Positions 351 through 9,760 of a stretch of 9,760 nt of DNA are shown in pieces. Origin of the DNA: Chloroflexota bacterium (lineage in GTDB: Bacteria; Chloroflexota; Anaerolineae; Promineifilales; Promineifilaceae); contig QQUD01001086.1 of assembly GCA_008501785.1 (NCBI GenBank), positions 1 to 9,760 of the forward strand, written 5' to 3'. The notes beneath the pieces are model-generated. The model had not been told where the DNA came from. It did no database searches and saw only the letters and a list, made by a program, of their open reading frames with translations. Positions within the stretch are counted from its first letter, which is position 1, and every line of letters begins with the position of its first letter. The position numbers and the translations under genes are program-made.

Positions 351-2477
351 ATGAAACAAACAATCTGGTCACGCCTTTTCCTGGGGTCCATTATGGTCGC
401 GGTTGTCGCATGTCGACCAGTCACCGAGGAAAATGGTAATCTTAGCGCAACAGAGGATGTGTCTGTTGTCACGCGATCTTCAATCATTTCCCAGCAGGCA
501 ACTGCCACAAATGACGATCAAGGTGACGCAACTCAATTACCGCCTCCTGAGCCAACCCCCATACCCACAACCACAGTCTCCCTACAACAAATTGGAAGTG
601 AGGCATCTGGCCTGCAAATTGCTGTACCGCCAGAATGGGTTAATTTGACAGGCGATTTAGACACGCCGCTGGCTGTCAATTCGCTTGGGCTGGTGGTGTT
701 ATTAGCGGCAGATTCAGAACGGGCTGGGAGTGCCTTGCTGGCAAACAAACAAATTGACACGGGTGCGTATGCCGCCGGATTGGTCACCAATCTTGACCTG
801 CCAGGTTCATCTCCAAGCACAGCATTAACCGCATTACTTGAAAATTATGATGTTTCCCCGATTGGGGTCCCAAATATGATAGAGACTGCATCGTCTGTTT
901 CTGCGGACATTCCTGGGGCATTCATTGATATTGAAGGCGCACCGCTCATCTTCAACAACGGCAGTGACAATTTGCGCACACGTATCTATTTATTCACTAT
1001 CAATCCAGGCAGTACACTTGTCTCGCTGCCAACACAAGCTGTCTTTTTATTTACAGCTGAATCAGACCAATGGGCATCTCACATCGATACATTTGATGAG
1101 ATTGCCGAAACGATTATTATCCACGACATTTTTGCCAATATTCAGATCAACGATGGCACAACTTCAATTTTGGGCAGTTTGGGAGAACAAGATTTAATAA
1201 ACGGCCGTTTAGAGTCCGGCATTAGTGATATTTGGACATTTAATAGTGAAAACGGCCGTTATGCCACCATCACCGCCAATCCAGAAGACACAAATCTCGA
1301 TTTGACCATGTCACTCATCAGCCCTTCAGGGCAAACTATTTCCACTATCGACAATGGCTTTGCTGGAGATACCGAGGTTGTAATAGATTTACTGCTGCCA
1401 GAGTCAGGCACCTACTTGATTGAAATAGAAGAGTTCTTCAATGCAGGCGGGCGTTACACGCTCAGCCTCGTCCTTACAGACGATCCTTTATTTAACAACG
1501 GAGGGCGGATCGAGCTGGGACAAACCATCCAAAGCGACCTACCAGCCGAAGGGAAAAAAGTGTGGCAATTTATCGGAACAGCCAACGACTTGGTCAGTAT
1601 TGTGCTAATTCCTGAAGGCCCGTTTGACGCAATATTAGAGTTATATAGCCCCGACGGCATTCGTCTGGTTGGTCTTGACGAAGGGTTTAGTGGTGATGCA
1701 GAAGTCATTTCTGGTTATGAACTGCCGTTGACTGGCGAATACACCATCATCATTAGCAGCTTTGCTGGTGATGGGGGCGGGTATTCCTTGTCTTTAGATG
1801 AAGGTGGAGAAGATACGGCAAACTTCCATGATGCTGGTGATTTGATCTATGGCGATGTTAAACAAGAATCATTGCAGGCCAACGAGGCGCACGCCTGGTT
1901 CTTTAATGGCACAAAAGATGATGAAGTTGAAATCACGATTACACCATTGAATTCAGCTCTAGATTTGAATATCTGGTTGTTAGACCCAAATGTGGAACGA
2001 CTCACAACCCAAGACAAGCATCCAGCAGGGGAGCAAGAACGGGTCACCTTTACACTGCCCCAAGATGGTCAATATTTGATATTGGTCAGTGAATTTTTTG
2101 GCACAGCAGGGGATTACGAGATTGAATTGGCGGCAAATGAGATCAACGAACCTACCTATGCTGGGCTGTTAGAATATGATGATCCTGTATCAGGTCGGTT
2201 AGCGGCAGAACAAAGCAATCTGTGGCTCTTTGATGCCAAGAAGGGTGATCTTTTGGACATTATGTTGACAACAACTAGATCCAATCGCGATCTTTCATTT
2301 TATATACAAGGTCCAGACGGCAATCGTGTACTCACGGTTGACAACACAGATGCAGGTGAAGATGAGGCTTTTCTCATGTTCTCGATTGGCAGCGATGGGC
2401 AGTGGGGCATTGTAATTGAAGAATTTTATGGAGATGCAGCACCTTACTCGTTGACCGTTACACGATCTAAACGTTGA
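351..2477 (+). CDS. Surface lipoprotein with four PPC-like beta-sandwich repeats
   Basis: 708 residues. The N-terminus has a basic start, a hydrophobic stretch and a lipobox ending V-V-A-C with Cys21, so a membrane-anchored lipoprotein is expected. A Pro/Thr-rich linker lies at about 63-76. Residues about 78-262 form a separate globular region that vaguely recalls PsbP/DcrB-like domains (a weak guess). Four repeats of about 105 residues follow (about 279-375, 387-484, 498-594, 607-705). Each ends in a G-x-Y/W strand, an E/S-F-F/Y/A-x-x-x-(A/G) turn and a final Y-x-(L/I)-x-(L/V) strand, for example ESGTYLIEIEEFFNAGGRY and QDGQYLILVSEFFGTAGDY. This matches the bacterial pre-peptidase C-terminal (PPC) fold, a non-catalytic surface or adhesion module. 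No protease domain is present. The start is fixed by in-frame stops at 339 and 345; no good Shine-Dalgarno lies within 15 bases (AAGGAG at 325-330 is 20 bases away). The gene contains two ACGGCCGT palindromes, both read as Asn-Gly-Arg. Confidence 0.8.
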   Translation: MKQTIWSRLFLGSIMVAVVACRPVTEENGNLSATEDVSVVTRSSIISQQATATNDDQGDATQLPPPEPTPIPTTTVSLQQIGSEASGLQIAVPPEWVNLTGDLDTPLAVNSLGLVVLLAADSERAGSALLANKQIDTGAYAAGLVTNLDLPGSSPSTALTALLENYDVSPIGVPNMIETASSVSADIPGAFIDIEGAPLIFNNGSDNLRTRIYLFTINPGSTLVSLPTQAVFLFTAESDQWASHIDTFDEIAETIIIHDIFANIQINDGTTSILGSLGEQDLINGRLESGISDIWTFNSENGRYATITANPEDTNLDLTMSLISPSGQTISTIDNGFAGDTEVVIDLLLPESGTYLIEIEEFFNAGGRYTLSLVLTDDPLFNNGGRIELGQTIQSDLPAEGKKVWQFIGTANDLVSIVLIPEGPFDAILELYSPDGIRLVGLDEGFSGDAEVISGYELPLTGEYTIIISSFAGDGGGYSLSLDEGGEDTANFHDAGDLIYGDVKQESLQANEAHAWFFNGTKDDEVEITITPLNSALDLNIWLLDPNVERLTTQDKHPAGEQERVTFTLPQDGQYLILVSEFFGTAGDYEIELAANEINEPTYAGLLEYDDPVSGRLAAEQSNLWLFDAKKGDLLDIMLTTTRSNRDLSFYIQGPDGNRVLTVDNTDAGEDEAFLMFSIGSDGQWGIVIEEFYGDAAPYSLTVTRSKR

Positions 2478-2551
2478 TTGGCTATAGCTTTTACAAATCG
2501 TAGCACACCACCTCAGATGAAAACCTGTAGGTCGTGATGCTGTCTTGACCT

Positions 2552-2608
2552 ATTGTCCTGAAAATCGTTGCACAAAACAACGTTTTATCCAACGATTTTC
2601 AGGACAAT
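2552..2608. repeat. 19-bp perfect stem-loop in the intergenic gap
   Basis: ATTGTCCTGAAAATCGTTG at 2552-2570 is perfectly complementary to CAACGATTTTCAGGACAAT at 2590-2608, around a 19-nt loop. The loop contains a nested 5-bp inverted repeat (AAAAC/GTTTT). It lies 75 bases after the PPC lipoprotein gene and 59 before the dehydrogenase. A terminator is possible, but there is no T-run on either side. The length and perfection of the arms fit a REP- or MITE-like dispersed element equally well. The rest of the gap (2478-2551) shows nothing else I can name. Confidence 0.6.
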
Positions 2609-2652
2609 TAAATAATCATCAACCTGTAATATGATCCTTGGTCGATTTTTCC

Positions 2653-2658
2653 TATAAT
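2653..2658 (+). promoter_or_regulatory. -10 box TATAAT, probable leaderless promoter
   Basis: A perfect TATAAT at 2653-2658 ends 8 bases before the ATG at 2667. With normal -10 to start-site geometry, transcription would begin at about 2664-2667, essentially on the start codon. No Shine-Dalgarno is visible between 2640 and 2666, which fits a leaderless transcript. No clear -35 sits 16-18 bases upstream. Confidence 0.5.
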
Positions 2659-2666
2659 TGGCAACT

Positions 2667-4016
2667 ATGAAATATAAAACATTATTCTTGCTGCTTTTAG
2701 TTTTACCCGTGGCAGCTTGTATTCCACGAGCGACGGAGCCAATCACCAATACCCCGCCAGTTGTGGCTGAACCGACTGCCACATTGCCTTCCGCCCCAAC
2801 CACAACACCGGAGACAGTTGTAGAAGCACCTGCTTCACCAACGGCCATTTCCACCAGCCCAATTGAAAATGCAACGGCCGTTCCCCCCACCCCAACACCA
2901 ACCGAAACACCAACCAGCACCCCGACCCCTATGCCTGTGCAGGTCAACAGTATCTCTCTAAAAACAATTATTCCTGAAGGACAGTTAGTTAGACCTACTT
3001 ACCTGACCCACGCATTTGATAACCGGCTCTTTATCATAGAGCAGGTGGGCAAGATTCGCATTGTCGAAAATGGCGTCTTGCTGGCCGAACCATTCCTCGA
3101 TCTGCAAGATCGGGTTGGGTCATTTGCGAATGAGCAGGGATTATTAGGGCTGGCGTTTCACCCGGAGTATGTGGAAAACGGCCGTTTCTTCGTCAACTAC
3201 ACCAACCCCGGCGGCAGCACCGTTATTGCCCGCTTTCAAGTTAACTCTGGCAATCCAAATCTGGCCGATCCTGACAGCGAGCGCATTTTGCTCACAATCG
3301 GCCAACCATTCAACAATCATAACGGCGGCCAGGTTGGATTCGGGCCTGATGGCTTCCTCTACATCGCCATGGGTGACGGTGGCAGTGCCGAAGACCCACA
3401 AAATAATGGGCAAAATCCAGCCACACTGCTAGGGTCTCTACTGCGTATCGACGTCAATTATGATGATGGAACCAATTTTTACGCAGTTCCCTCTACCAAC
3501 CCATTTGTCAACGACGACGCCATTCGCAATGAAATTTGGTCATATGGTTGGCGAAACCCATGGCGCTTTAGTTTTGACCGGGCCACAGGGGATTTGTTTG
3601 TTGCCGATGTCGGCCAATACACCTACGAAGAAGTGCATTTCCAACCGGCTAACAGCACCGGCGGCGAAAATTACGGCTGGAACATTATGGAAGGGCAGCA
3701 CTGTTTTAACGCAGAAAGCTGCAATTCGGAAGGGTTACAGCTCCCCATTTTTGAATACAATCACAGCAGTGGCTGTTCAATTACCGGCGGCTACGTGTAT
3801 CGCGGCACAGCTTTCCCCAGCCTCACCGGCAACTATTTTGTGGGAGATTACTGTACGGGCATTATTTGGTCTGTGATTCCGCAGGCTGATGGCAGTTGGA
3901 CAAACACGCAAGTCCTTTTCCTCGAAAAACAAATCTCTAGCTTCGGTGAAGATGCCAATGGCGAGCTTTACGCCGTTGGTCACGCCACCGGCGAAGTCTG
4001 GCAAATTCAACCATAA
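2667..4016 (+). CDS. Lipoprotein PQQ-dependent glucose/sorbosone-type dehydrogenase
   Basis: 449 residues from the ATG at 2667. An in-frame TTG at 2658 overlaps the -10 box and is rejected. The lipobox V-A-A-C places the lipid on Cys18, and a Thr/Pro-rich linker runs from about 22 to 92. From about 100 to the end it is a six-bladed-propeller dehydrogenase of the GSDH / soluble aldose dehydrogenase family, which oxidises sugars using PQQ and calcium outside the cytoplasm. Visible landmarks are RLFIIEQVGKIRIV (120-133), GLLGLAFHPEY (158-168), NNHNGG with the presumed catalytic His218, FGPDGFLYIAMGDGG (225-239), GWRNPWRFSFD with Arg296, EEV at 321-323, GGENYGW (332-338) and ITGGYVYRG (372-380). 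Four extra Cys (346, 352, 370, 396) could form disulfides. The substrate cannot be read from sequence. A close paralogue follows 47 bases downstream, probably in the same operon. It carries two iterated palindromes (Thr-Ala-Val at 70-72, Asn-Gly-Arg at 171-173). Confidence 0.88.
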   Translation: MKYKTLFLLLLVLPVAACIPRATEPITNTPPVVAEPTATLPSAPTTTPETVVEAPASPTAISTSPIENATAVPPTPTPTETPTSTPTPMPVQVNSISLKTIIPEGQLVRPTYLTHAFDNRLFIIEQVGKIRIVENGVLLAEPFLDLQDRVGSFANEQGLLGLAFHPEYVENGRFFVNYTNPGGSTVIARFQVNSGNPNLADPDSERILLTIGQPFNNHNGGQVGFGPDGFLYIAMGDGGSAEDPQNNGQNPATLLGSLLRIDVNYDDGTNFYAVPSTNPFVNDDAIRNEIWSYGWRNPWRFSFDRATGDLFVADVGQYTYEEVHFQPANSTGGENYGWNIMEGQHCFNAESCNSEGLQLPIFEYNHSSGCSITGGYVYRGTAFPSLTGNYFVGDYCTGIIWSVIPQADGSWTNTQVLFLEKQISSFGEDANGELYAVGHATGEVWQIQP

Positions 4017-4051
4017 CAATTTGGGTGCAGCGCACTTTATCATCAATACCC

Positions 4052-4056
4052 AGGAG
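4052..4056 (+). promoter_or_regulatory. Shine-Dalgarno AGGAG that decides the start at 4064
   Basis: AGGAG lies 7 bases before the ATG at 4064. It selects this start over the in-frame GTG at 4025, which has no ribosome binding site and would put 13 charged or polar residues in front of an otherwise normal signal peptide. Confidence 0.75.
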
Positions 4057-4063
4057 AATAATT

Positions 4064-5359
4064 ATGTCAAATCGTTTGTTCATGCTGGGAGCCACTTTTT
4101 TGTTGATTGTATTAGGTGTGGGCGGAACGGCCGTTTCGGCCAGGGATGTGAGGAGGGTAACGGCCGTTCCCACCGTCAATGCATCTTTCCTTGCCAGCGG
4201 GTTCTCCAAGCCCACTGACATCACCCATGCTGGAGACAATCGCCTTTTTGTCGCTGAGCAAGACGGATATATCAAAATCATTGATGAAAATGGCTCCGTC
4301 CTCGCTAATCCATTTTTAGACATTAACATCTTGGTAGACATCAATAGTGAACGTGGACTGTTGGGACTTACATTTCATCCCGATTATCCAACCACACCAT
4401 ATTTTTATGTCAACTACACAGCAAAAGGAAGTGGTGACACAATCATCGATCGATTCTCAGTCACCACTGATCCGAATCTGGCTGATGTCAGCAGTCGTCA
4501 GGAAATATTGCGTGTGGCTCAACCGCAAGAAAACCACAACGCGGGCGATCTCGCCTTTGGGCCAGATGGCTATTTGTACATCACGATGGGCGATGGGGGT
4601 GGTGGTGGAGACAACGACACAGGACACGGCACAGTCGGCAACGGACAAGAACGACAAACGCTATTAGGCAAAATTCTGCGCATTGATGCAGACAATGGTA
4701 CACCTTACACCATTCCAAACGATAACCCATTCGTTGGAGACAACAGCACATTAGATGAAATATGGGCACTCGGCTTACGTAATCCTTGGCGGTTTAGCTT
4801 TGATCGGGAAACCGGCGATTTGTACATTGCGGATGTTGGCCAGGGAGCGCGAGAAGAAGTCAACTTTCAGCCAGCCAGCAGCAGCGGCGGCGAAAATTAC
4901 GGCTGGCGCTGTTATGAAGGATTCAACACATTCAACACATCCGGCTGTGGTCCATCTAGTGACTACGTCTTTCCCATTGATGATTATCCACGCAGCAACA
5001 TTACAAATCCCAACGACGCCGGCACCTCCATCACAGGTGGATTTGTGTATCGGGGCAGCGATTTCCCTGATCTAAACGGCTATTACATCTACGCCGACTT
5101 TATTAACAGCAATGTTTGGTTAGCCAAACAGGGCAGTCCTGACTGGGAAATCACCCCAATCGGCAAGCTAACCGACCTTTTCAACCCCAGCACCTTCGGT
5201 GAGGGGTGCGATGGCGAGTTATATGTCGCTGCTTATAGCAACGGCAGCATTCTTCAAATACAAACGAATGGCAGTCCCCCCGCCCCTCTGGTTCCATCCG
5301 GCGCACACCTGCTTTATTTGCCAATGATCATGGACAATCACAACTCTAATTGTCGTTGA
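4064..5359 (+). CDS. Secreted PQQ-dependent sugar dehydrogenase paralogue with (Y)LPM C-terminal tail
   Basis: 431 residues. A Sec signal peptide (MSNRLFMLGATFLLIVLGV, then a likely cleavage after Val-Ser-Ala at 24-26) replaces the lipobox and Thr/Pro linker of its upstream neighbour. The rest aligns by eye along its length with that protein: RLFVAEQDGYIKII (60-73), GLLGLTFHPDY (98-108), ENHNAGD with the presumed catalytic His158, FGPDGYLYITMGDGGGGG (165-182), GLRNPWRFSFD with Arg239, EEV at 264-266, GGENYGW (275-281) and ITGGFVYRG (323-331). It is therefore a GSDH / aldose dehydrogenase-family propeller using PQQ and calcium, acting outside the cytoplasm; substrate unknown. A Gly/Asp-rich insert follows GDGG at 177-194. 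The C-terminus adds a Pro-rich spacer and LLYLPMIMDN at 416-425, a tail shared with the propeller-like protein encoded at 5427-7127. The pair probably arose by tandem duplication. Two iterated palindromes sit near the N-terminus, both read Thr-Ala-Val. Confidence 0.87.
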   Translation: MSNRLFMLGATFLLIVLGVGGTAVSARDVRRVTAVPTVNASFLASGFSKPTDITHAGDNRLFVAEQDGYIKIIDENGSVLANPFLDINILVDINSERGLLGLTFHPDYPTTPYFYVNYTAKGSGDTIIDRFSVTTDPNLADVSSRQEILRVAQPQENHNAGDLAFGPDGYLYITMGDGGGGGDNDTGHGTVGNGQERQTLLGKILRIDADNGTPYTIPNDNPFVGDNSTLDEIWALGLRNPWRFSFDRETGDLYIADVGQGAREEVNFQPASSSGGENYGWRCYEGFNTFNTSGCGPSSDYVFPIDDYPRSNITNPNDAGTSITGGFVYRGSDFPDLNGYYIYADFINSNVWLAKQGSPDWEITPIGKLTDLFNPSTFGEGCDGELYVAAYSNGSILQIQTNGSPPAPLVPSGAHLLYLPMIMDNHNSNCR

Positions 5360-5363
5360 GGCT

Positions 5364-5402
5364 AAAAAATAGAGACTGGAGACTTGTTTGGTTTCCAGTC
5401 TC
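5364..5402 (-). terminator. Intrinsic terminator of the minus-strand propeller gene
   Basis: GAGACTGGA at 5372-5380 pairs perfectly with TCCAGTCTC at 5394-5402. The stem extends inward by four more pairs, two of them G-U, leaving a 5-nt loop. Reading the minus strand, the stem is followed by a run of six T (complement of 5364-5369), the classic arrangement. It starts 25 bases after the stop at 5427. On the plus strand there is no T-run, so it should act mainly on minus-strand transcripts, though the stem also faces the end of the plus-strand dehydrogenase gene at 5359. Confidence 0.75.
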
Positions 5403-5426
5403 CAATCTCACAGTTCATGTTTACCT

Positions 5427-7127
5427 TTAACGAATTAACATCGGCAGAAATATTTGCTCAAATTCTTGTTTGATGGTTGCAACAAAGACATCTCTTCCTT
5501 CGCTGGTAATGTCGGCGTCTTCGTTCCAAAGTAAGTGGAGATTGTTGGTATCCAAAGTCATATGAACACCATAACTTGATGTTTCGTCAACGGCCGTTTC
5601 ATTCAACTCCACCCTTCCATCAACCTCATTCCAATAAAACATGTCGTGACCACTGCTTGGCAAGCTTTGATCCCAGCCAATATGAACCTGCCCCAATCTA
5701 TCAATGACAATTTGGAGGCCATCTAGGTATCCTTGTAAATCAGAAATCAATTGAGTCTGTTTCGTTTGACTGTTCCAATGCTTTATTTCCCCATTATTTG
5801 CAGCCACAAAATGGATGACGCCTTTCTCACTTATCATATCAGTTGGATCTGGATTGGTTGTGTCGAAGAAATCGCTGGATAGGTTTGTGACAACGGCCGT
5901 TCCTGAATCCCAGTAAAACAGCCCATCTTGCCACCACACCAAATGCAAATTGCCCTGGCTATTAAACTCGGTCTCAAGAACCTCAATGCCAGCAGAGGAT
6001 GTTCCAGCCAGGGCGCTTAAATCTTGGAATGCAGCCATATCGCTGTTCCAATACCATACTTTATTTGTTGTTTTGTAATACAGATGCGCCTTGCCACCAT
6101 CTGACACGAGCAAGGTATCATTGGCAGATTCACTGGCAAGCTCTGTTGCAGCAGTCATGGTGGGATTCCAAAAATACGTTAAGTAATTAGGAGCGTTATA
6201 GCTGTAGTTGCTGGTATATGGCAAACCAGACACATCCACCTTTACTTGCATAAAACCACAGTTCACACCCGACAAAATAGATTTGCTGCGCTTGGTAACT
6301 GAATCCCAATAATAAAAACAGGAATCGCTGGCGTCTTCATCCCAAATGACATGAGCTTTTCCATTGTTGTCAACGCTTAAATGTGCAGATTGAATATCCG
6401 CGCTAACTGGCGTTGGTAGGGTGTCAGTTACGGCCGTATCCGAATTCCAATGATAAAGTGTTTCACCTTTCTGCCACAAAACATGTGCAATTTCCTGATA
6501 GATGCCCAGTTCCAGCCTGCCGGATTCCGAGTCGGTCACCAATTGCGTGGTTGTGCTATCATGCCAATAATACAAAAAGGAATTCCCTGCACTTTGAGAA
6601 AAATCTCGCCAGACAATATGGGCTTTGCCGCTGCTATCTATCATCATCTGTGCATCTGAAACCGATAATTCACCAGATGCTTGGGCCCGGCTCGTCAATT
6701 GAATTGTTCCTAGCGTTGAATGCCAATAGAATAAGTTGTTTTCATTGATACTGGATTCTTCAAACCACAAGACGTGCGCCAAACCATCATCAGCAACACC
6801 ATGCTTATAATGATTGTGTGCAGTCCCTTCCGATTGATCAGGATCACTTAAATTGATTGTGCTGCTATTGGTAGATAAATTTCTGTAGAATAGATCGCTT
6901 CCCTCAGAACTGCCTGTTTCTTCAATCCACACCGCATGTGTTTTTCCACCTGAAGTTCGTAATGAACCCGGACCGCTATAACCATTGCCCGTATTGCCTT
7001 CGGTCATGCTGTGATCTGATATTTGATTGGCCGTTAAACTGGCTTTTTCTGGTTCAGCAACCAGAACTCCTGTGAGTACCCAACAAAATAAAACAACAAG
7101 GACGATGATTGTGCTGCGAATCTGCAT
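5427..7127 (-). CDS. Secreted 11-repeat beta-propeller-like protein with FLPM tail
   Basis: 566 residues from the ATG at 7125-7127. This start is chosen over the ATG at 7137-7139 because GGAGG (complement of 7133-7137) lies 5 bases before it and overlaps the upstream ATG. A signal peptide covers residues 1-24 (hydrophobic IIVLVVLFCWVLTGVLVA). Eleven units of about 40-55 residues follow. Most contain a (A/L/V/T)-H-(V/L/I)-x-W strand and then a (F/Y)-(Y/H)-W-(N/D/H)-S strand: AHVLW 117, AHIVW 169, AHVLW 214, AHVIW 258, LHLVW 394, VHIGW 481, LHLLW 530, each paired with sequences such as LFYWHS, FYYWDS, VWYWNS, LFYWDS, IKHWNS. This resembles sialidase/BNR-like or other propeller repeats, but I recognise no catalytic residues, so a binding or adhesive role is more likely than an enzyme. 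Eleven units would suit two propellers or a solenoid. The protein ends in IFLPMLIR. Three iterated palindromes all encode Thr-Ala-Val. Confidence 0.75.
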   Translation of the reverse strand: MQIRSTIIVLVVLFCWVLTGVLVAEPEKASLTANQISDHSMTEGNTGNGYSGPGSLRTSGGKTHAVWIEETGSSEGSDLFYRNLSTNSSTINLSDPDQSEGTAHNHYKHGVADDGLAHVLWFEESSINENNLFYWHSTLGTIQLTSRAQASGELSVSDAQMMIDSSGKAHIVWRDFSQSAGNSFLYYWHDSTTTQLVTDSESGRLELGIYQEIAHVLWQKGETLYHWNSDTAVTDTLPTPVSADIQSAHLSVDNNGKAHVIWDEDASDSCFYYWDSVTKRSKSILSGVNCGFMQVKVDVSGLPYTSNYSYNAPNYLTYFWNPTMTAATELASESANDTLLVSDGGKAHLYYKTTNKVWYWNSDMAAFQDLSALAGTSSAGIEVLETEFNSQGNLHLVWWQDGLFYWDSGTAVVTNLSSDFFDTTNPDPTDMISEKGVIHFVAANNGEIKHWNSQTKQTQLISDLQGYLDGLQIVIDRLGQVHIGWDQSLPSSGHDMFYWNEVDGRVELNETAVDETSSYGVHMTLDTNNLHLLWNEDADITSEGRDVFVATIKQEFEQIFLPMLIR

Positions 7128-7132
7128 TGTTT

Positions 7133-7137
7133 CCTCC
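7133..7137 (-). promoter_or_regulatory. Shine-Dalgarno GGAGG that decides the start at 7127
   Basis: On the minus strand GGAGG is 5 bases from the ATG at 7127. It sits in the loop of a small 5-bp stem (GTTTC/GAAAC), which may be coincidental. Confidence 0.7.
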
Positions 7138-7203
7138 ATGAAACGTAAACTTTTTTTTGTTAGGGCAAATTAACTTTTTAGAGTGTGAGCACGCGACTTT
7201 TGG

Positions 7204-7554
7204 TCAACTGAGCTTGACGCGAATCATATCATTTTTGACGACCGTAGCAAACATTTTTAACCGATAAACTTCATCTTCAGGCCAGGCAATACGGCCGTTT
7301 CTCACATCAAAACAGTAGCTATGTTCTGGGCAATACAGCTTCCAGCGATGCAGTTCCCCCTGCGACATATCGGCAGATGCATGGGGGCAGCGGCTGTCAA
7401 ATGCCACTAGCTTTCCCTCGTACTGGGCCAGCACAACTTTTCGACCATTTATTTTGACGGCTTGCATGGGGGTTGATTGCAGGGAAACGGCCGTTATCCC
7501 CGTTTCATAAAATCCATCTGCATCCGGTTCAATTTTTGGTTGCCAAAGCTTCAT
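7204..7554 (-). CDS. Small Rieske-type [2Fe-2S] ferredoxin
   Basis: 116 residues, a single Rieske domain with no signal peptide or membrane segment, so a cytoplasmic electron carrier is expected. The two cluster motifs are C-P-H with Cys56 and His58, and C-P-E-H with Cys75 and His78. These give the two-Cys, two-His ligands of a [2Fe-2S] centre. The 16-residue spacing and the following S-Y-C-F-D-V-R-N-G fit the NirD / ferredoxin-component group of stand-alone Rieske proteins. Such proteins pass electrons to ring-hydroxylating oxygenases or nitrite reductase, but no such partner is in view, so the acceptor is unknown. The start is supported by AGGAG (complement of 7561-7565) 6 bases upstream. 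It is followed in the same direction, after 76 bases with no terminator that I can see, by the propeller-like protein; cotranscription is possible but a functional link is doubtful. It contains two palindromes, one read Thr-Ala-Val and one Asn-Gly-Arg. Confidence 0.88.
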   Translation of the reverse strand: MKLWQPKIEPDADGFYETGITAVSLQSTPMQAVKINGRKVVLAQYEGKLVAFDSRCPHASADMSQGELHRWKLYCPEHSYCFDVRNGRIAWPEDEVYRLKMFATVVKNDMIRVKLS

Positions 7555-7566
7555 TGATTGCTCCTG

Positions 7567-7587
7567 TAAAATAGTCTCGCTATTTTA
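7567..7587 (-). promoter_or_regulatory. TAAAATAG-N5-CTATTTTA inverted repeat upstream of the Rieske gene
   Basis: Perfect 8-bp arms at 7567-7574 and 7580-7587 are separated by 5 bases. The repeat is just upstream of the Shine-Dalgarno of the Rieske gene. On the minus strand the distal arm contains TAAAAT (complement of 7582-7587), usable as a -10 box. The geometry suits an operator for a dimeric repressor overlapping the promoter; this is inference. Confidence 0.4.
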
Positions 7588-7623
7588 TCTTAGATTCGCT
7601 CGGTAAAAAAGCTCACAGACCGC

Positions 7624-7629
7624 TATAAT
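7624..7629 (+). promoter_or_regulatory. -10-like TATAAT ahead of the small membrane-protein gene
   Basis: A perfect TATAAT hexamer lies 88 bases upstream of the ATG at 7718, in the divergent gap. No recognisable -35 is present at 16-18 bases. If used, the transcript leader would contain the 18-bp stem-loop at 7651-7696. Confidence 0.3.
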
Positions 7630-7650
7630 CATTCCCGTTATCGTTATTTG

Positions 7651-7696
7651 GGAGTGGAGGCTTTAGCCGGAATGTTCTGGCTAAAGCCTCCACTCC
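7651..7696. repeat. 18-bp perfect stem-loop, REP-like, in a divergent gap
   Basis: GGAGTGGAGGCTTTAGCC at 7651-7668 is perfectly complementary to GGCTAAAGCCTCCACTCC at 7679-7696. Three more inner pairs, one of them G-U, leave a 4-nt loop. Each arm also contains a small inverted repeat (GGCT..AGCC). It lies between divergently transcribed genes, so it is not in a terminator position for either. I favour a dispersed REP-like element, with a leader regulatory structure as the alternative. The rest of the gap (7588-7650) holds only the -10-like hexamer. Confidence 0.65.
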
Positions 7697-7717
7697 AGGC
7701 AATATTTGGAATTACCC

Positions 7718-8128
7718 ATGAAAATCCCAAACAAACTACCGGGCTTACAATTGATTACCGCACTGCTTGCCATTTACGCCGCCATCTGGATTAGTCTCGA
7801 AGGCGCATTGGCGCAGGTGTTGGTTATGGGCGTTGGTGTTACAGTGGTTGCTGCGGGGCATTTGATGCAGCGGTATTTGGGCGGGCGCACGGTTTCGGTA
7901 ATGGTGGGGGTGGCGGTTACGGCCGTTCTCGGACTCCTCACCGGCATCTTCAGCATCGGCATGACACTAATCTTCATGGCCATCAAAACCGGGCTGCACG
8001 CACATGGTCCCGAATTTACCCAAGCCGAACTTACCTGGGTGATGCAACAACTGCCGTTGTGGGGAATCGTAGGACTGTTAGCAGGAACGGCCGTTGGACT
8101 GCTAACAGCCGGGTTTTCAAATTCCTAA
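7718..8128 (+). CDS. Small multi-pass membrane protein of unknown function
   Basis: 136 residues from the ATG at 7718; an in-frame TTG at 7706 adds four residues and has no support. Hydrophobic segments are at about 10-26, 30-48, 60-90 (possibly two helices) and 113-131, giving about four or five membrane spans. A short polar stretch (KTGLHAHGPEFTQAEL, 90-105) precedes the last span. I do not recognise the family and see no catalytic motif. The Shine-Dalgarno is poor. The stop codon overlaps the left arm of the hairpin at 8127-8176. It carries two palindromes, both Thr-Ala-Val and both inside hydrophobic segments. It stands alone on the plus strand, divergent from the Rieske gene and convergent with the OB-fold protein gene. 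Confidence 0.75.
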   Translation: MKIPNKLPGLQLITALLAIYAAIWISLEGALAQVLVMGVGVTVVAAGHLMQRYLGGRTVSVMVGVAVTAVLGLLTGIFSIGMTLIFMAIKTGLHAHGPEFTQAELTWVMQQLPLWGIVGLLAGTAVGLLTAGFSNS

Positions 8129-8176
8129 GTGTGCGTTCGGAAATAACTTTGGACATTCATTGCCGAACGCACACTT
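8127..8176 (+). terminator. 14-bp perfect hairpin overlapping the membrane-protein stop codon
   Basis: AAGTGTGCGTTCGG at 8127-8140 pairs perfectly with CCGAACGCACACTT at 8163-8176, around a 22-nt loop. The left arm includes the last two bases of the TAA stop. It lies between convergent genes, so a terminator is likely by position, but no T-run follows on either strand. Confidence 0.5.
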
Positions 8177-8179
8177 GAA

Positions 8180-8216
8180 GCTCATCCGTCAATTCCATAT
8201 TTATAAACGGATGAGC
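8180..8216 (-). terminator. 10-bp hairpin directly after the OB-fold protein gene
   Basis: GCTCATCCGT at 8180-8189 pairs with ACGGATGAGC at 8207-8216; the loop is 17 nt and AT-rich. It ends one base before the minus-strand stop codon at 8218-8220 and could stop minus-strand transcription together with the neighbouring 8127-8176 hairpin. There is no T-run. Confidence 0.45.
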
Positions 8217-8217
8217 A

Positions 8218-9192
8218 CTAAGGGTATGCAGGTGTTCCTGGAGGTGGATAGGCGGGAGGGGTTACTTCTTGAGGCGTTGCTGTAGGAAGCCCTATCGGTG
8301 GCTGCGAGCCATTTCCAGGCGTTGCGGTTGCATTGGGGTCAGGGGTTGTGGTTTCTGTGGCCGTGTGGGTAACGGTTGCGGTACCCGCTGGAGCACCTGT
8401 TGTCGCTGTTGGCTGGTTGCCAGAAACCGTCGTTGGCGAGGCGGTAGGTTGCGTCGTCGGGCGTAGGGTTGGGGTTGCGTCAACAGGTGCAGATGTTGGA
8501 AAACCTGGCGGTGTGTTGGTTGGCGACTGCGTGGGAGTCGCAGTTGGAGGGGTAAGCGTCACGGCCGTTTCGTCATTCACGGTTGGTGTTAGCTCAGGCG
8601 GTTCACCAGAAACGGCCGTTGCCGTCATCGTTGCCACAGTGCCCTGAGCACCGCTATCAACCGGGGATGTACCGGGCAGCGGCAGCGGATTCGGCTGCAC
8701 AATGCGTGACACGACCAAATACCAAACCGAAGCCATCTCCGGCTCTTTGCCACAGCCAGACGGCCCTTGATACCGTTGCCACACGCCATCCACCGTTAAA
8801 GTTGTGTCTGCTGGAATTAAATGCAGCAGCGACTCTAACCCCTGTGCATTCATCTGCAAATCTTCGGCAATCAATCCCCATCGAATCACCGGACCATCAA
8901 ATGAAACACAATCTGGAGGCGTTAATCGCGTGAAACGCCCCGTTACACGAATCCGCTGATCCCGGTATTGTTCAGGATTAGCTTGCAGGTCGGGAAATGA
9001 GACTGGCTCAAACGGGGCGTTGTAGTTGACGGGAACGGCCGTTTCAGTCGCCACAAACGGCTTAATTGGGCGCAAATTATTTCCAGACAATAATGCCGTT
9101 GCCCCCAAAATCAAAAAAAGCAGCAACAATATTACCAGTATCCACCCAATCGCACGGCGCGGAGTTTGTGATTCGTTCGTCTCTTCACTCAT
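8218..9192 (-). CDS. Membrane-anchored OB-fold-like protein with long Thr/Pro-rich tail
   Basis: 324 residues. A short polar N-terminus with RR at 12-13 is followed by one membrane segment (about 14-36). A linker (about 37-62) leads to a globular domain at about 63-168 containing FPDLQANPEQYRDQRIRVTGR, a G-V-W strand and Val-rich final strands. This looks like an OB-fold of the kind used by small extracytoplasmic binding domains. It is not a family I can name with certainty. The only two cysteines (95 and 147) are both in this domain and could form a disulfide. Residues about 170-324 are low-complexity Thr/Pro/Ala, ending in PPAYPPPGTPAYP, probably a disordered and possibly glycosylated outer tail. 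Topology should be N-in, C-out. No Shine-Dalgarno precedes the ATG; a TAAAAT box 6 bases upstream suggests leaderless translation. Three palindromes all encode Thr-Ala-Val. Confidence 0.75.
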   Translation of the reverse strand: MSEETNESQTPRRAIGWILVILLLLFLILGATALLSGNNLRPIKPFVATETAVPVNYNAPFEPVSFPDLQANPEQYRDQRIRVTGRFTRLTPPDCVSFDGPVIRWGLIAEDLQMNAQGLESLLHLIPADTTLTVDGVWQRYQGPSGCGKEPEMASVWYLVVSRIVQPNPLPLPGTSPVDSGAQGTVATMTATAVSGEPPELTPTVNDETAVTLTPPTATPTQSPTNTPPGFPTSAPVDATPTLRPTTQPTASPTTVSGNQPTATTGAPAGTATVTHTATETTTPDPNATATPGNGSQPPIGLPTATPQEVTPPAYPPPGTPAYP

Positions 9193-9198
9193 ACAAAT

Positions 9199-9204
9199 AT
9201 TTTA
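9199..9204 (-). promoter_or_regulatory. -10 box TAAAAT, probable leaderless promoter of the OB-fold gene
   Basis: On the minus strand TAAAAT (complement of 9199-9204) ends 6 bases before the ATG at 9192. There is no purine-rich ribosome site in between. The geometry matches that of the dehydrogenase gene at 2667. No firm -35 is seen. Confidence 0.4.
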
Positions 9205-9246
9205 TCTGCAAAATCTGTGAAATCTATGATAATTAGCACATAATAC

Positions 9247-9760
9247 CTATTCAGATCGACTTCGCAACCTATCAAATTTAGGTAACTGCGTCCCGCGATG
9301 GTGTACCCACCATTCAACAATCAACACAATTACCGCAATACCAAGCAGCCAGGGCCAAAATTCACGCTGCCCAACGTCTTCTGCAACGGCCGTTTCCACC
9401 GTCGTCTGTCCAATTTGAATCTGTGCCACCGGTCGAATATCTGATTCACCCGGCGCAAACAGGTTGACGGCAAAATTACCTGCGGCTCGATCGCCACGAC
9501 TGTCACGCAAATTTACCGCGTACAGTCCCGGCTGTTCTGTCTCGGTGAAAATGATACTTTCTTCACCCACTTCTTGCAGCCAGCGACTACCATCTGGTTT
9601 GAGCACGGAAACGGCCGTTGTGCCAGCTCCCGGTGCAATCGGCACCGGATCACCCGGATGTAACCCAGTTGGGGTGGCAAACGCACGCCCTGGACTCAAC
9701 CAGCCCGTAATATTAGCCATTAACACAGGAAATGCAATTTGTAACGGTAAATCAGAGTCC
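9247..9760 (-). CDS. C-terminal part of a membrane protein, VWA/BatA-like, 5' end outside the window
   Basis: The frame is open to the window edge (first whole codon at 9759), giving 170 residues before the TAG at 9247-9249. The visible part begins DSDLPLQIAFPVLMANITGWLSPG, so the GTG at 9726 is internal, not a start. A beta-rich region follows with EQPGLYAVNL, then GNFAVNLFAPGESDIRP, then a membrane segment (about 134-152, WPWLLGIAVIVLIVEWW) and a basic cytoplasmic tail. The phrase L-Q-x-A-F-P-x-L-x-A-N, the G-x-Y-x-V and F-A-V-N strands, and a final single helix with E-W-W are what I associate with the C-termini of BatA/VWA-type membrane proteins of Chloroflexota. The VWA domain itself is not visible, so this is a family-style inference. 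Two palindromes encode Thr-Ala-Val. It is 54 bases upstream of, and in the same direction as, the OB-fold gene, so the two may share an operon. Confidence 0.65.
   Translation of the reverse strand, partial: DSDLPLQIAFPVLMANITGWLSPGRAFATPTGLHPGDPVPIAPGAGTTAVSVLKPDGSRWLQEVGEESIIFTETEQPGLYAVNLRDSRGDRAAGNFAVNLFAPGESDIRPVAQIQIGQTTVETAVAEDVGQREFWPWLLGIAVIVLIVEWWVHHRGTQLPKFDRLRSRSE

What the first reader, a model, noticed from the sequence alone, without database searches (positions are those of the whole stretch)
1200..9619. HIP1-like highly iterated palindrome AACGGCCGTT
The 8-base core ACGGCCGT occurs 18 times where about 0.15 is expected at even base composition (9760/65536). The full 10-mer occurs 14 times where about 0.009 is expected. 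Every complete gene carries two or three copies, whatever its function, strand or protein fold, so selection on the protein cannot explain it. Every CGGCCG I found is embedded in ACGGCCGT. Cyanobacterial HIP1 is the only close analogue I know; I do not know a named element with this sequence. It could be a target of a DNA methyltransferase, a nucleoid or segregation protein, an uptake sequence, or a mismatch-driven mutational attractor.
Basis: partly seen in the sequence, partly recalled or inferred. Interest (0 to 1): 0.85.

Follow-up and report, generated by a model that had tools for sequence, protein, structure and literature searches.

The report
Chloroflexota genomes' own iterated palindrome
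Bacteria of one Anaerolineae family carry hundreds to thousands of copies of a short DNA palindrome built on CGGCCG, in clade-specific dialects of which one is also dense in phages, and the DNA on both sides of each copy bears a strand-asymmetric footprint, seen more faintly at the cyanobacterial HIP1 palindrome, that hints at what such sites are for.

Summary
In detail: 18 ACGGCCGT and 14 AACGGCCGTT in 9760 bases, against 0.11 and 0.01 in shuffles. In relatives it is genome-wide: up to 5060 copies of the 10-mer in 6.2 Mb. In a 396-genome sample of the class, strong carriers fall in one family. The invariant part is CGGCCG. Flanks form symmetric dialects: ACGGCCGT (most carriers), TCGGCCGA (2 genomes), GCGGCCGC (1), bare CGGCCG; one genome has TGCCGGCA instead. 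Phage contigs carry the ACGGCCGT dialect. Sites are conserved far above control 8-mers, which speaks against a neutral mutational attractor. None of three DNA methyltransferase families is coextensive with it. New here: both strands are G-rich and C-poor on the 5' side of each site (skew +0.30, fading over about 40 bp). This follows the site in rpoB columns, is absent at other palindromes scanned, and recurs more weakly at cyanobacterial HIP1. Best reading: sites of a two-fold symmetric factor, kept by selection, where DNA is processed strand-asymmetrically. Factor unidentified. Works like HIP1; not HIP1.

The parts
1201..1208 (.). HIP site ACGGCCGT (in AACGGCCGTT 1200-1209)
1252..1259 (.). 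HIP site ACGGCCGT (in AACGGCCGTT)
2874..2881 (.). HIP site ACGGCCGT (in AACGGCCGTT)
3178..3185 (.). HIP site ACGGCCGT (in AACGGCCGTT); same site intact in G408 (L411), one base off in G410 (L413)
4127..4134 (.). HIP site ACGGCCGT (in AACGGCCGTT)
4160..4167 (.). HIP site ACGGCCGT (in AACGGCCGTT)
5590..5597 (.). HIP site ACGGCCGT (in AACGGCCGTT)
5893..5900 (.). HIP site ACGGCCGT (in AACGGCCGTT)
6430..6437 (.). HIP site ACGGCCGT (TACGGCCGTA)
7291..7298 (.). HIP site ACGGCCGT (TACGGCCGTT)
7487..7494 (.). HIP site ACGGCCGT (in AACGGCCGTT)
7919..7926 (.). HIP site ACGGCCGT (TACGGCCGTT)
8087..8094 (.). HIP site ACGGCCGT (in AACGGCCGTT)
8561..8568 (.). HIP site ACGGCCGT (CACGGCCGTT)
8612..8619 (.). 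HIP site ACGGCCGT (in AACGGCCGTT)
9035..9042 (.). HIP site ACGGCCGT (in AACGGCCGTT)
9386..9393 (.). HIP site ACGGCCGT (in AACGGCCGTT)
9611..9618 (.). HIP site ACGGCCGT (in AACGGCCGTT)

Best explanation
A highly iterated palindrome (HIP) of a Chloroflexota family. Each copy is a binding site for an unidentified, two-fold symmetric (dimeric) DNA-binding factor that reads CGGCCG plus one or two flanking bases per half-site; the flank preference drifts between clades (dialects). The factor acts on DNA inside the cell, chromosomal or phage. Copies are kept by selection, or by an equivalent biased repair, of about 4 to 5 scaled units per site. At the sites DNA is repeatedly handled strand by strand (nicking, resection or resynthesis, with one strand exposed or renewed on each side). 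Over time this leaves each strand G-rich and C-poor on the 5' side of the site. I think a repair or recombination role most likely. Shown: enrichment, distribution, dialects, conservation, phage sites, the skew switch, and that no searched methyltransferase family is coextensive. Inferred: the factor, its dimeric nature, the selection strength (from an assumed mutation-selection-drift equilibrium), that the skew is a processing footprint, and the repair or recombination role.
For: Genome-wide counts. Dialects are symmetric on both flanks: A..T 1055 of 1696 CGGCCG in 26 genomes, T..A 98 of 125 in two, G..C 55 of 59 in one. Sites occur in all three frames and outside ORFs. One-base core variants sit at about 7-19 per Mb per type against 1450 per Mb for the site; the mean ratio of about 110 gives a scaled selection of about 4.7. 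In 14 of 14 genome pairs the 8-mer is better conserved than control 8-mers; for example G411 and G412 at 82% identity share all five of their aligned sites against 20% of control 8-mers. Fifteen viral contigs carry 0.7-3.7 sites per kb, and six of eight contigs tested show phage functional genes. Skew switch: +0.301 at 2-10 bp to +0.092 at 31-40 bp, n=1185; same sign in T and G dialects; positive in 27 of 27 A genomes with 10 or more sites; +0.50/-0.48 at third codon positions and +0.345 between genes; in rpoB 0.239 with the site against 0.022 without, 10 of 10 columns; other palindromic 6-mers z mean -0.10, sd 1.00, n=597. It also follows a different motif, TGCCGGCA, in G407, and HIP1 in cyanobacteria weakly.
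Against: The factor is not identified. The extended skew is nearly absent in phages (+0.123 at 2-10 bp, then +0.03 or less) and weak in the bare-CGGCCG genomes, which have the most sites (+0.05). Four-fold sites near conserved copies diverge about as much as distant ones (0.42 against 0.45), so there is no sign of raised mutation. The bias is mainly G for C, with little change in A and T, which no simple deamination footprint gives; it could instead be selection for G-rich arms. HIP1's skew is about 2-7 times weaker and not seen in one of four cyanobacterial sources. G405 (6 sites) shows none. Genomes are related and not independent, and most are fragmented drafts.
Confidence: 0.45

Rival explanations
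1. Architectural reading: the sites bind a nucleoid or segregation protein, and the G-rich 5' arms are part of an extended binding or wrapping preference kept by selection, not a footprint of processing.
For: Conservation of sites and rarity of one-base variants; G at 3 and 4 bp from the 8-mer is raised in hosts (0.43, 0.49) and phages (0.46, 0.36); spacing is near-Poisson (CV 1.12) with few pairs closer than 25 bp (9 observed, about 32 expected, though the expectation includes overlapping placements); no raised substitution near sites.
Against: The skew fades smoothly over 40 bp with a small tail to 400-800 bp, longer than one protein would read. Phages keep the site but not the arms. One to two sites per kb in all genes is unusual for known segregation sites (recalled).
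Confidence: 0.2
2. DNA uptake sequence with dialects, as in Neisseriaceae: the motif is kept because DNA carrying it is preferentially taken up and recombined.
For: Clade-wise dialects around an invariant core, with thousands of copies, resemble DUS dialects (PMC3630211, abstract and passages seen). Sites are conserved.
Against: Known DUS dialects share a core 5'-CTG-3', which is not a palindrome; here both flanks change symmetrically. Viral contigs carry 0.7-3.7 sites per kb. Competence genes were not searched.
Confidence: 0.14
3. Methylation-driven HIP as in Elhai's model: an orphan cytosine methyltransferase methylates CGGCCG or GGCC, and methyl-directed mismatch repair ratchets the sites up.
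For: Elhai reports at least one putative matching methyltransferase in all cyanobacterial genomes with such sequences (PMC4390886, section 2.5.3), though four HIP1-rich strains lack a recognisable CGATCG enzyme (passage). GGCC is an m4C target in Synechocystis (PMC6560206, passages). MutL is found in 48 of 52 genomes. The skew would fit a nick-and-excise process.
Against: PF00145 is absent from 14 of the 29 genomes with 361 or more 10-mers, e.g. G371, G178, G412, G417. PF01555 has only weak hits in G371, G405, G417 (E 6e-5 to 5e-4) and modest ones in G412 and G178. D12 hits occur in 42 of 52 genomes, carriers and non-carriers alike, and the three proteins examined are Dam-like. G215, rich in CGGCCG (O/E 9.9), has no hit in any of the three families. 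Vsr is in 8 of 52. A and T flanks do not create the GmeC step that the model needs.
Confidence: 0.1
4. Chi-like site: stops a RecBCD or AddAB type nuclease and leaves a G-rich 3' tail for RecA; the palindrome works in both directions.
For: 3' tails would end at the site on both sides, the polarity of the skew. Phages that must survive such a nuclease would gain by carrying the sites, and viral contigs carry them.
Against: Strong PF12705 hits in long frames (1012-1118 aa, AddB-like) are in six genomes (G419, G404, G361, G421, G011, G422), with weaker ones in long frames of G162, G308 and G254; most other carriers show only shorter frames, typically 270-300 aa. Chi is read in one strand (recalled), so symmetric dialect changes are unexpected.
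Confidence: 0.06
5. Neutral mutational attractor without selection.
For: Sites lie in all frames and genes.
Against: Position-wise conservation in 14 of 14 pairs. At four rpoB columns, 72 of 73 cores in A genomes keep A..T, against 5 of 22 in other genomes (counted from the table).
Confidence: 0.03

Closest known systems
HIP1 (GCGATCGC) of cyanobacteria and Elhai's alternate HIPs (TCGATCGA, GGGATCCC, GGCGCC)
   Same: GC-rich palindrome iterated about once per kb, in genes of all kinds, with an invariant core and lineage-specific flanks or replacements. Same sign of GC-skew switch at HIP1, but weaker (+0.04 to +0.06 at 5-40 bp, 707 sites in four sources).
   Different: Different core (CGGCCG); a different phylum; no coextensive cytosine methyltransferase family among those searched; skew about 2-7 times stronger, depending on distance.
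DNA uptake sequences of Neisseriaceae (dialects; PMC3630211)
   Same: Thousands of copies, an invariant core, clade-specific dialects.
   Different: Known DUS dialects share a short non-palindromic core; here a perfect palindrome whose two flanks change together; phages carry it.
Chi sites (recalled)
   Same: Short, over-represented, species-specific, also useful to phages; a strand-asymmetric neighbourhood would be expected.
   Different: Palindromic; strong AddB-like hits in only six of 52 genomes.
Sites of type II methyltransferases or endonucleases with CGGCCG or GCGGCCGC specificity (EagI, NotI types; recalled)
   Same: Same recognition letters.
   Different: Restriction sites are usually avoided, not iterated (recalled); no coextensive enzyme family found.

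Membership tests
Highly iterated palindromes (general kind) | A perfect palindrome strongly over-represented over the whole genome | tested here: met
   29 of 52 family genomes hold 361-5060 copies of AACGGCCGTT; the reversed control is 1-42 in those 29.
Highly iterated palindromes (general kind) | Copies in genes of any kind and any frame | tested here: met
   Frames 467/320/147; 122 of 1056 outside ORFs of 450 nt or more.
Highly iterated palindromes (general kind) | Lineage-specific variants replacing each other | tested here: met
   A, T, G, bare-core and TGCCGGCA types.
HIP1 | Sequence GCGATCGC with core CGATCG | tested here: not met
   Window counts: CGATCG 2, GCGATCGC 0.
HIP1 | Cyanobacterial genome | tested here: not met
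   Carriers are Anaerolineae/Chloroflexi records.
HIP1 / Elhai model | Resident methyltransferase for the core in nearly all carriers | tested here: not met
   PF00145 absent from 14 of 29 carriers and only weak PF01555 hits in several of these; drafts, but MutL is found in 48 of 52. Specificities were not determined.
HIP1 | Flanking GC-skew switch (a property found here, not a published criterion) | tested here: met
   for HIP1 (weak), for this element.
DNA uptake sequence | Enhances transformation through a pilus receptor | not testable with these tools
   No experiment possible; competence genes were not searched.
DNA uptake sequence | Non-palindromic oriented motif | tested here: not met
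   Perfect palindrome with symmetric flanks.
Chi site | A RecBCD/AddAB type enzyme in carriers | tested here: inconclusive
   PF12705 in 45 of 52, but strong hits in long AddB-like frames in only six genomes; AdnAB and RecBCD were not searched separately.

The most novel reading that the evidence does not exclude
Highly iterated palindromes are a general, convergent class of chromosomal sites, present at least in cyanobacteria and a Chloroflexota family. At them a dimeric factor directs strand-specific DNA processing roughly once per kilobase. The strand-symmetric GC-skew switch is their motif-independent signature and could be used to find unknown HIPs: in a scan of palindromic 6-mers it singles out GCCGGC in G407, whose HIP TGCCGGCA was first noticed through a control count. 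Phages that share a dialect could be matched to hosts by it.
Probability: 0.4. Interest if true: 0.93.

Novelty: new variant of a known kind. Interest (0 to 1): 0.86.

Why it matters
HIP1 has been known for decades without an agreed function (recalled). This shows an independent system of the same kind outside cyanobacteria, with dialects. Several carriers lack the methyltransferase link on which the published model in PMC4390886 rests. It also shows a measurable strand-asymmetric footprint that HIP1 shares in weaker form. That turns 'what do HIPs do' into a direct test: map nicks, gaps and bound proteins at HIP sites. Dialects give natural swaps for finding the factor, and phage dialects may help host prediction.

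Tried and rejected
Methyltransferase as the cause: PF00145, PF01555 and PF02086 searched over the 52 family genomes; none coextensive (the match list was cut, its per-genome table was not). The D12 lead (Elhai places a GGCC enzyme in this Pfam family; GGCC m4C in Synechocystis) was dropped because the three proteins examined, of 42 genomes with hits, are Dam-like: closest to DpnM for G371, NCBIfam TIGR00571 for G371, G008 and G410. That the others are GATC-specific too is inference. Vsr: 8 of 52. MutL: 48 of 52, not discriminating.

Hairpins or extended palindromes: arms no more complementary than expected beyond the first flanking base. Codon artefact for the skew: excluded by third codon positions, intergenic sites and rpoB columns. 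Regular spacing: near-Poisson. Other class members as carriers: G240 and G327 have CGGCCG/GCCGGC ratios above 3 and G277 and G121 above 2.5, but their stretches show O/E of 0 to 2.6. G091, also above 2, shows 0.6 in its one readable stretch.

T- and G-dialect phages: the T scan gave 6 stretches, of which 2 passed my threshold.

Literature: searches found, in their listings, no report of a CGGCCG-type HIP or of a skew at HIPs; most listed papers were not opened. A paper on HIP1 selection that I recall (Nucleic Acids Research 2018) is not held.

Dead ends: ParA-like query for plasmids; HIP1-repeat string against plasmids; led only to one cyanobacterial plasmid used later. Scripts stopped with an error; rows that 33 and 69 had printed were used, the rest was redone. 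Rows dropped: loci found by the motif itself (L026-L045) and nine loci overlapping other fetched stretches were left out, but not; an overlap of about 700 bases between two G404 stretches (L071, L109) was missed. Masked stretches (all N: L111, L118, L122, L139, L142, L145, L158, L165; L403) carried no data.
Full report
Observation. The window holds 14 AACGGCCGTT and 18 ACGGCCGT; shuffles give 0.01 and 0.11. All 18 CGGCCG are inside ACGGCCGT. All 18 lie in the eight ORFs that I take as genes, two or three in each (coordinates). Pfam names a PPC-domain protein, two tandem glucose/sorbosone dehydrogenases and a Rieske protein; four of the eight proteins have no family.

Where it occurs. The window's genome is not held. 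A scan of the collection of 84,980 species genomes for three 10-mers within short gaps gave 20 stretches: 16 in Anaerolineae/Chloroflexi records and 4 elsewhere. Whole-genome counts for 12 of the genomes behind them separate seven with 780-5060 copies from five with 6-52. In 396 genomes of the class, drawn from a larger group, 19 hold 396 or more copies, three hold 79-149, and the others 29 or fewer. All 19 are among the 52 genomes of one family, where 29 hold 361 or more, six hold 51-149 and 17 hold 29 or fewer. Counting the core against the same-composition palindrome GCCGGC over the 396 genomes, read by eye from the table, a ratio of 3 or more occurs in 24; 22 are in this family, and stretches of the other two, G240 and G327, show O/E of 0.4 to 2.1. 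The tool does not name the family. Other classes were covered only by the scan. The window's second GSDH is closest to G408, G410 and G411 (62-64% identity), and window site 3178 is intact in G408.

Anatomy and dialects. In stretches of about 3-44 kb per genome (most 20-40 kb) the core CGGCCG is enriched in most family members, but its flanks differ. In 26 genomes ACGGCCGT is 1055 of 1696 CGGCCG. In G404 and G106 TCGGCCGA is 98 of 125. In G192 GCGGCCGC is 55 of 59. In G162, G421, G361 and G422 the core has no flank preference (307 sites in 65 kb). Ten others (G079, G414, G415, G047, G337, G299, G126, G418, G419, G420) show a core O/E of 3.4-5.4 without a clear flank preference. G406, G316 and G344 are at 1.3-1.8, and G405, counted as a carrier by its 361 10-mers, at 1.8-2.5. 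G407 has few CGGCCG (O/E 0.32) and instead TGCCGGCA, 15 of 22 GCCGGC in 14.7 kb. An rpoB tree of 40 genomes places the 22 A-dialect genomes with one non-carrier, G344, in a 23-genome group with SH-aLRT 84, drawn open; the T genomes G404 and G106 and the bare-core or weak-flank genomes G162, G215 and G290 fall together elsewhere (support 82). G404 (T) and G162 (bare core) are sisters, so a relaxed-specificity state may bridge dialects; this is inference.

Selection on sites. The site stands at 1450 per Mb against 7-19 per Mb for each one-base core variant and 46-124 for variants of the outer base; core variants are not enriched over other-dialect genomes (ratios 0.34-1.71). In 14 alignments of an rpoB region (6.1-8.6 kb aligned) between A genomes, 138 of 177 gap-free sites are intact in the partner (shared sites counted from both sides; pairs share genomes), against 3-54% of control 8-mers, higher in all 14. 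Counted once each in seven pairs, 37 sites are shared and 29 unshared, the latter including unalignable places. At four rpoB columns ACGGCCGT stands in 15-25 genomes. Among A genomes that have the core there, 72 of 73 cases have A..T; among other genomes 5 of 22 do (my count). Four-fold positions near conserved sites diverge about as much as distant ones (338 of 808 against 4243 of 9364). Spacing is near-Poisson (CV 1.12), with 9 distances under 25 bp against about 32 expected, an expectation that includes overlapping placements. Neighbourhoods of m5C methyltransferases hold fewer sites (0.98 per kb) than random stretches (1.67), but the conserved rpoB regions are as low (1.01), so low density is not a mark of acquired DNA alone.

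Phages. Nineteen of 163 viral stretches, from 15 IMG/VR contigs, carry the A dialect, at 0.69-3.72 sites per kb; most were found through site clusters, so densities are biased upward. Of eight contigs tested with PHROGs, six show phage functions: tape measure, portal and head protease, terminase (two), helicase loader, endolysin/FtsK-like. Core one-base variants are rare there too (5-30 per Mb per type against 2344). The hosts of these contigs are not known.

The strand-asymmetric flanks. Read from outside into the site, both strands are G-rich and C-poor. In A genomes (1185 sites) the skew is +0.301, +0.178, +0.145 and +0.092 in the bins 2-10, 11-20, 21-30 and 31-40 bp, then +0.03 to +0.05 out to 160 bp and +0.01 to +0.03 out to 800 bp. 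T dialect (99 sites): +0.231, +0.223, +0.122, +0.104. G dialect (55 sites): +0.202, +0.214, +0.132, +0.032. CGGCCG without A..T in the same A genomes: +0.056, then about zero. Control palindromes in A genomes: GCCGGC, TGGCCA and GCGCGC within 0.04 of zero; AGGCCT and CGATCG, with few sites, reach 0.08 with |z| below 2. CGGCCG of weakly enriched or non-carrier genomes: about zero. Bare-core genomes: +0.049 and +0.056; G290 and G215: +0.025 and +0.081. Phages: +0.123, then +0.03 or less. Window, 18 sites: +0.456, +0.231, +0.180, +0.207 (all). Random positions: mean -0.0007, sd 0.0074 over 200 draws. The arms are not complementary beyond chance apart from the first flanking base. At third codon positions the skew is +0.50 left and -0.48 right within 10 bp (baseline -0.018); it is mainly a swap of G for C, with A+T falling from 0.41 to 0.37 and 0.32; 100 intergenic sites show +0.345. 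All 27 A genomes with 10 or more sites are positive, z 2.7-9.9; G405 with 6 sites is not. In rpoB the third-position contrast is 0.239 with the site and 0.022 without, in 10 of 10 columns, five of which rest on one to three genomes. In a scan of palindromic 6-mers per genome, CGGCCG ranks first in 36 of 50 genomes; the other 597 scores have mean -0.10 and sd 1.00, and the one above 4 is GCCGGC in G407, part of its own HIP (genomes are related and flanks can overlap).

HIP1. In Planktothricoides stretches (405 sites), parts of two named cyanobacterial plasmids (Trichormus 89, Chroococcidiopsis 154 sites) and one uncultured cyanobacterial genome (59 sites), HIP1 shows the same sign: pooled +0.042, +0.054, +0.059 and +0.040 at 5-10, 11-20, 21-30 and 31-40 bp, z 2.6-4.7, with a small tail to 400 bp in Planktothricoides. 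CGATCG outside HIP1 shows about zero in these bins; single control bins reach z 2.8. By source, at 5-30 bp: z 6.3, 2.0, 2.8 and 0.5. So the effect is clear in Planktothricoides, suggestive in two sources and not seen in one.

Candidate proteins. PF00145 24 of 52 genomes, PF01555 48 of 52 (41 over the cut-off), PF02086 42 of 52, Vsr 8 of 52, MutL 48 of 52, PDDEXK_1 45 of 52. None separates carriers from non-carriers. Carriers such as G371 have no PF00145 hit, no PF01555 hit better than 4.6e-4 and a D12 enzyme closest to DpnM. The core has no adenine, so an adenine methyltransferase cannot methylate it. Draft genomes can hide a gene, but rpoB is found in 47 of 52 and MutL in 48 of 52, so repeated absence is informative.

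Reading. Symmetric dialect changes argue for a dimer reading double-stranded DNA. Conservation argues for selection or an equivalent drive. Phage sites argue that the factor acts inside the cell. The polarity of the skew equals what would follow if strands with 3' ends at the site were repeatedly exposed, or if 5'-to-3' excision or synthesis started there. Nick-directed mismatch repair and Chi-like end processing could both give that polarity. Elhai's version needs methylation (PMC4390886, section 3.4 part 1 of 2 read), which is not supported here. A purely selective origin of the G-rich arms is not excluded.

Novelty. The kind is known (HIP1, alternate HIPs); the element, its dialects, its phages and the skew signature were not found in print in the searches named in Tried and rejected. 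I saw the abstract, sections 2.3, 2.5.3 and 3.4 (part 1) and passages of PMC4390886, and passages of PMC6560206, PMC6329791 and PMC3630211. In PMC6329791, three Lake Biwa Chloroflexi draft genomes are reported with methylated GANTC, TTAA and GCWGC (passages); two of them are assigned to the CL500-11 group of Anaerolineae, and whether that group lies in the present family was not tested.

Noticed in passing
G407 stretches L104, L129, L250: This genome has its own iterated palindrome TGCCGGCA (15 of 22 GCCGGC in 14.7 kb), with the same flanking skew and a depletion of CGGCCG.
   Followed up: partly
G192 and G162, whole-genome counts: GCCGGC is almost missing (51 in 8.0 Mb and 132 in 4.1 Mb) while CGGCCG is abundant (13814 and 21019); perhaps restriction avoidance.
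   Followed up: no
G010 (record of L036): Only 28 copies of the 10-mer, on eight contigs: the bin may contain contigs of a carrier.
   Followed up: no
L031:6114-6199, L026, L027, L030: Local clusters of the 10-mer in a cyanobacterium and other bacteria whose genomes hold only 6-52 copies; they look like local repeats.
   Followed up: no
L057 (G411), L062 (G012): Methyltransferase neighbourhoods of about 3.7-3.9 kb without any ACGGCCGT; rpoB regions are also below average, so this is not proof of recent acquisition.
   Followed up: partly
whole family, PF12705 search: AddB-like frames of 1012-1118 aa with strong hits in six genomes, while shorter frames, typically 270-300 aa, are found in most.
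   Followed up: no
A-dialect viral contigs, stretches L002, L268, L001: 3.0-3.7 ACGGCCGT per kb, above the host mean of about 1.5-1.7 per kb; dialect might serve for host prediction.
   Followed up: partly
window 2658-5359: Tandem glucose/sorbosone dehydrogenase genes; a tandem pair also lies on G408 contig C704.
   Followed up: partly
PLSDB records NZ_CP119140, NZ_OL790812: Records of 2.2 and 4.1 Mb in the plasmid collection look like chromosomes.
   Followed up: no
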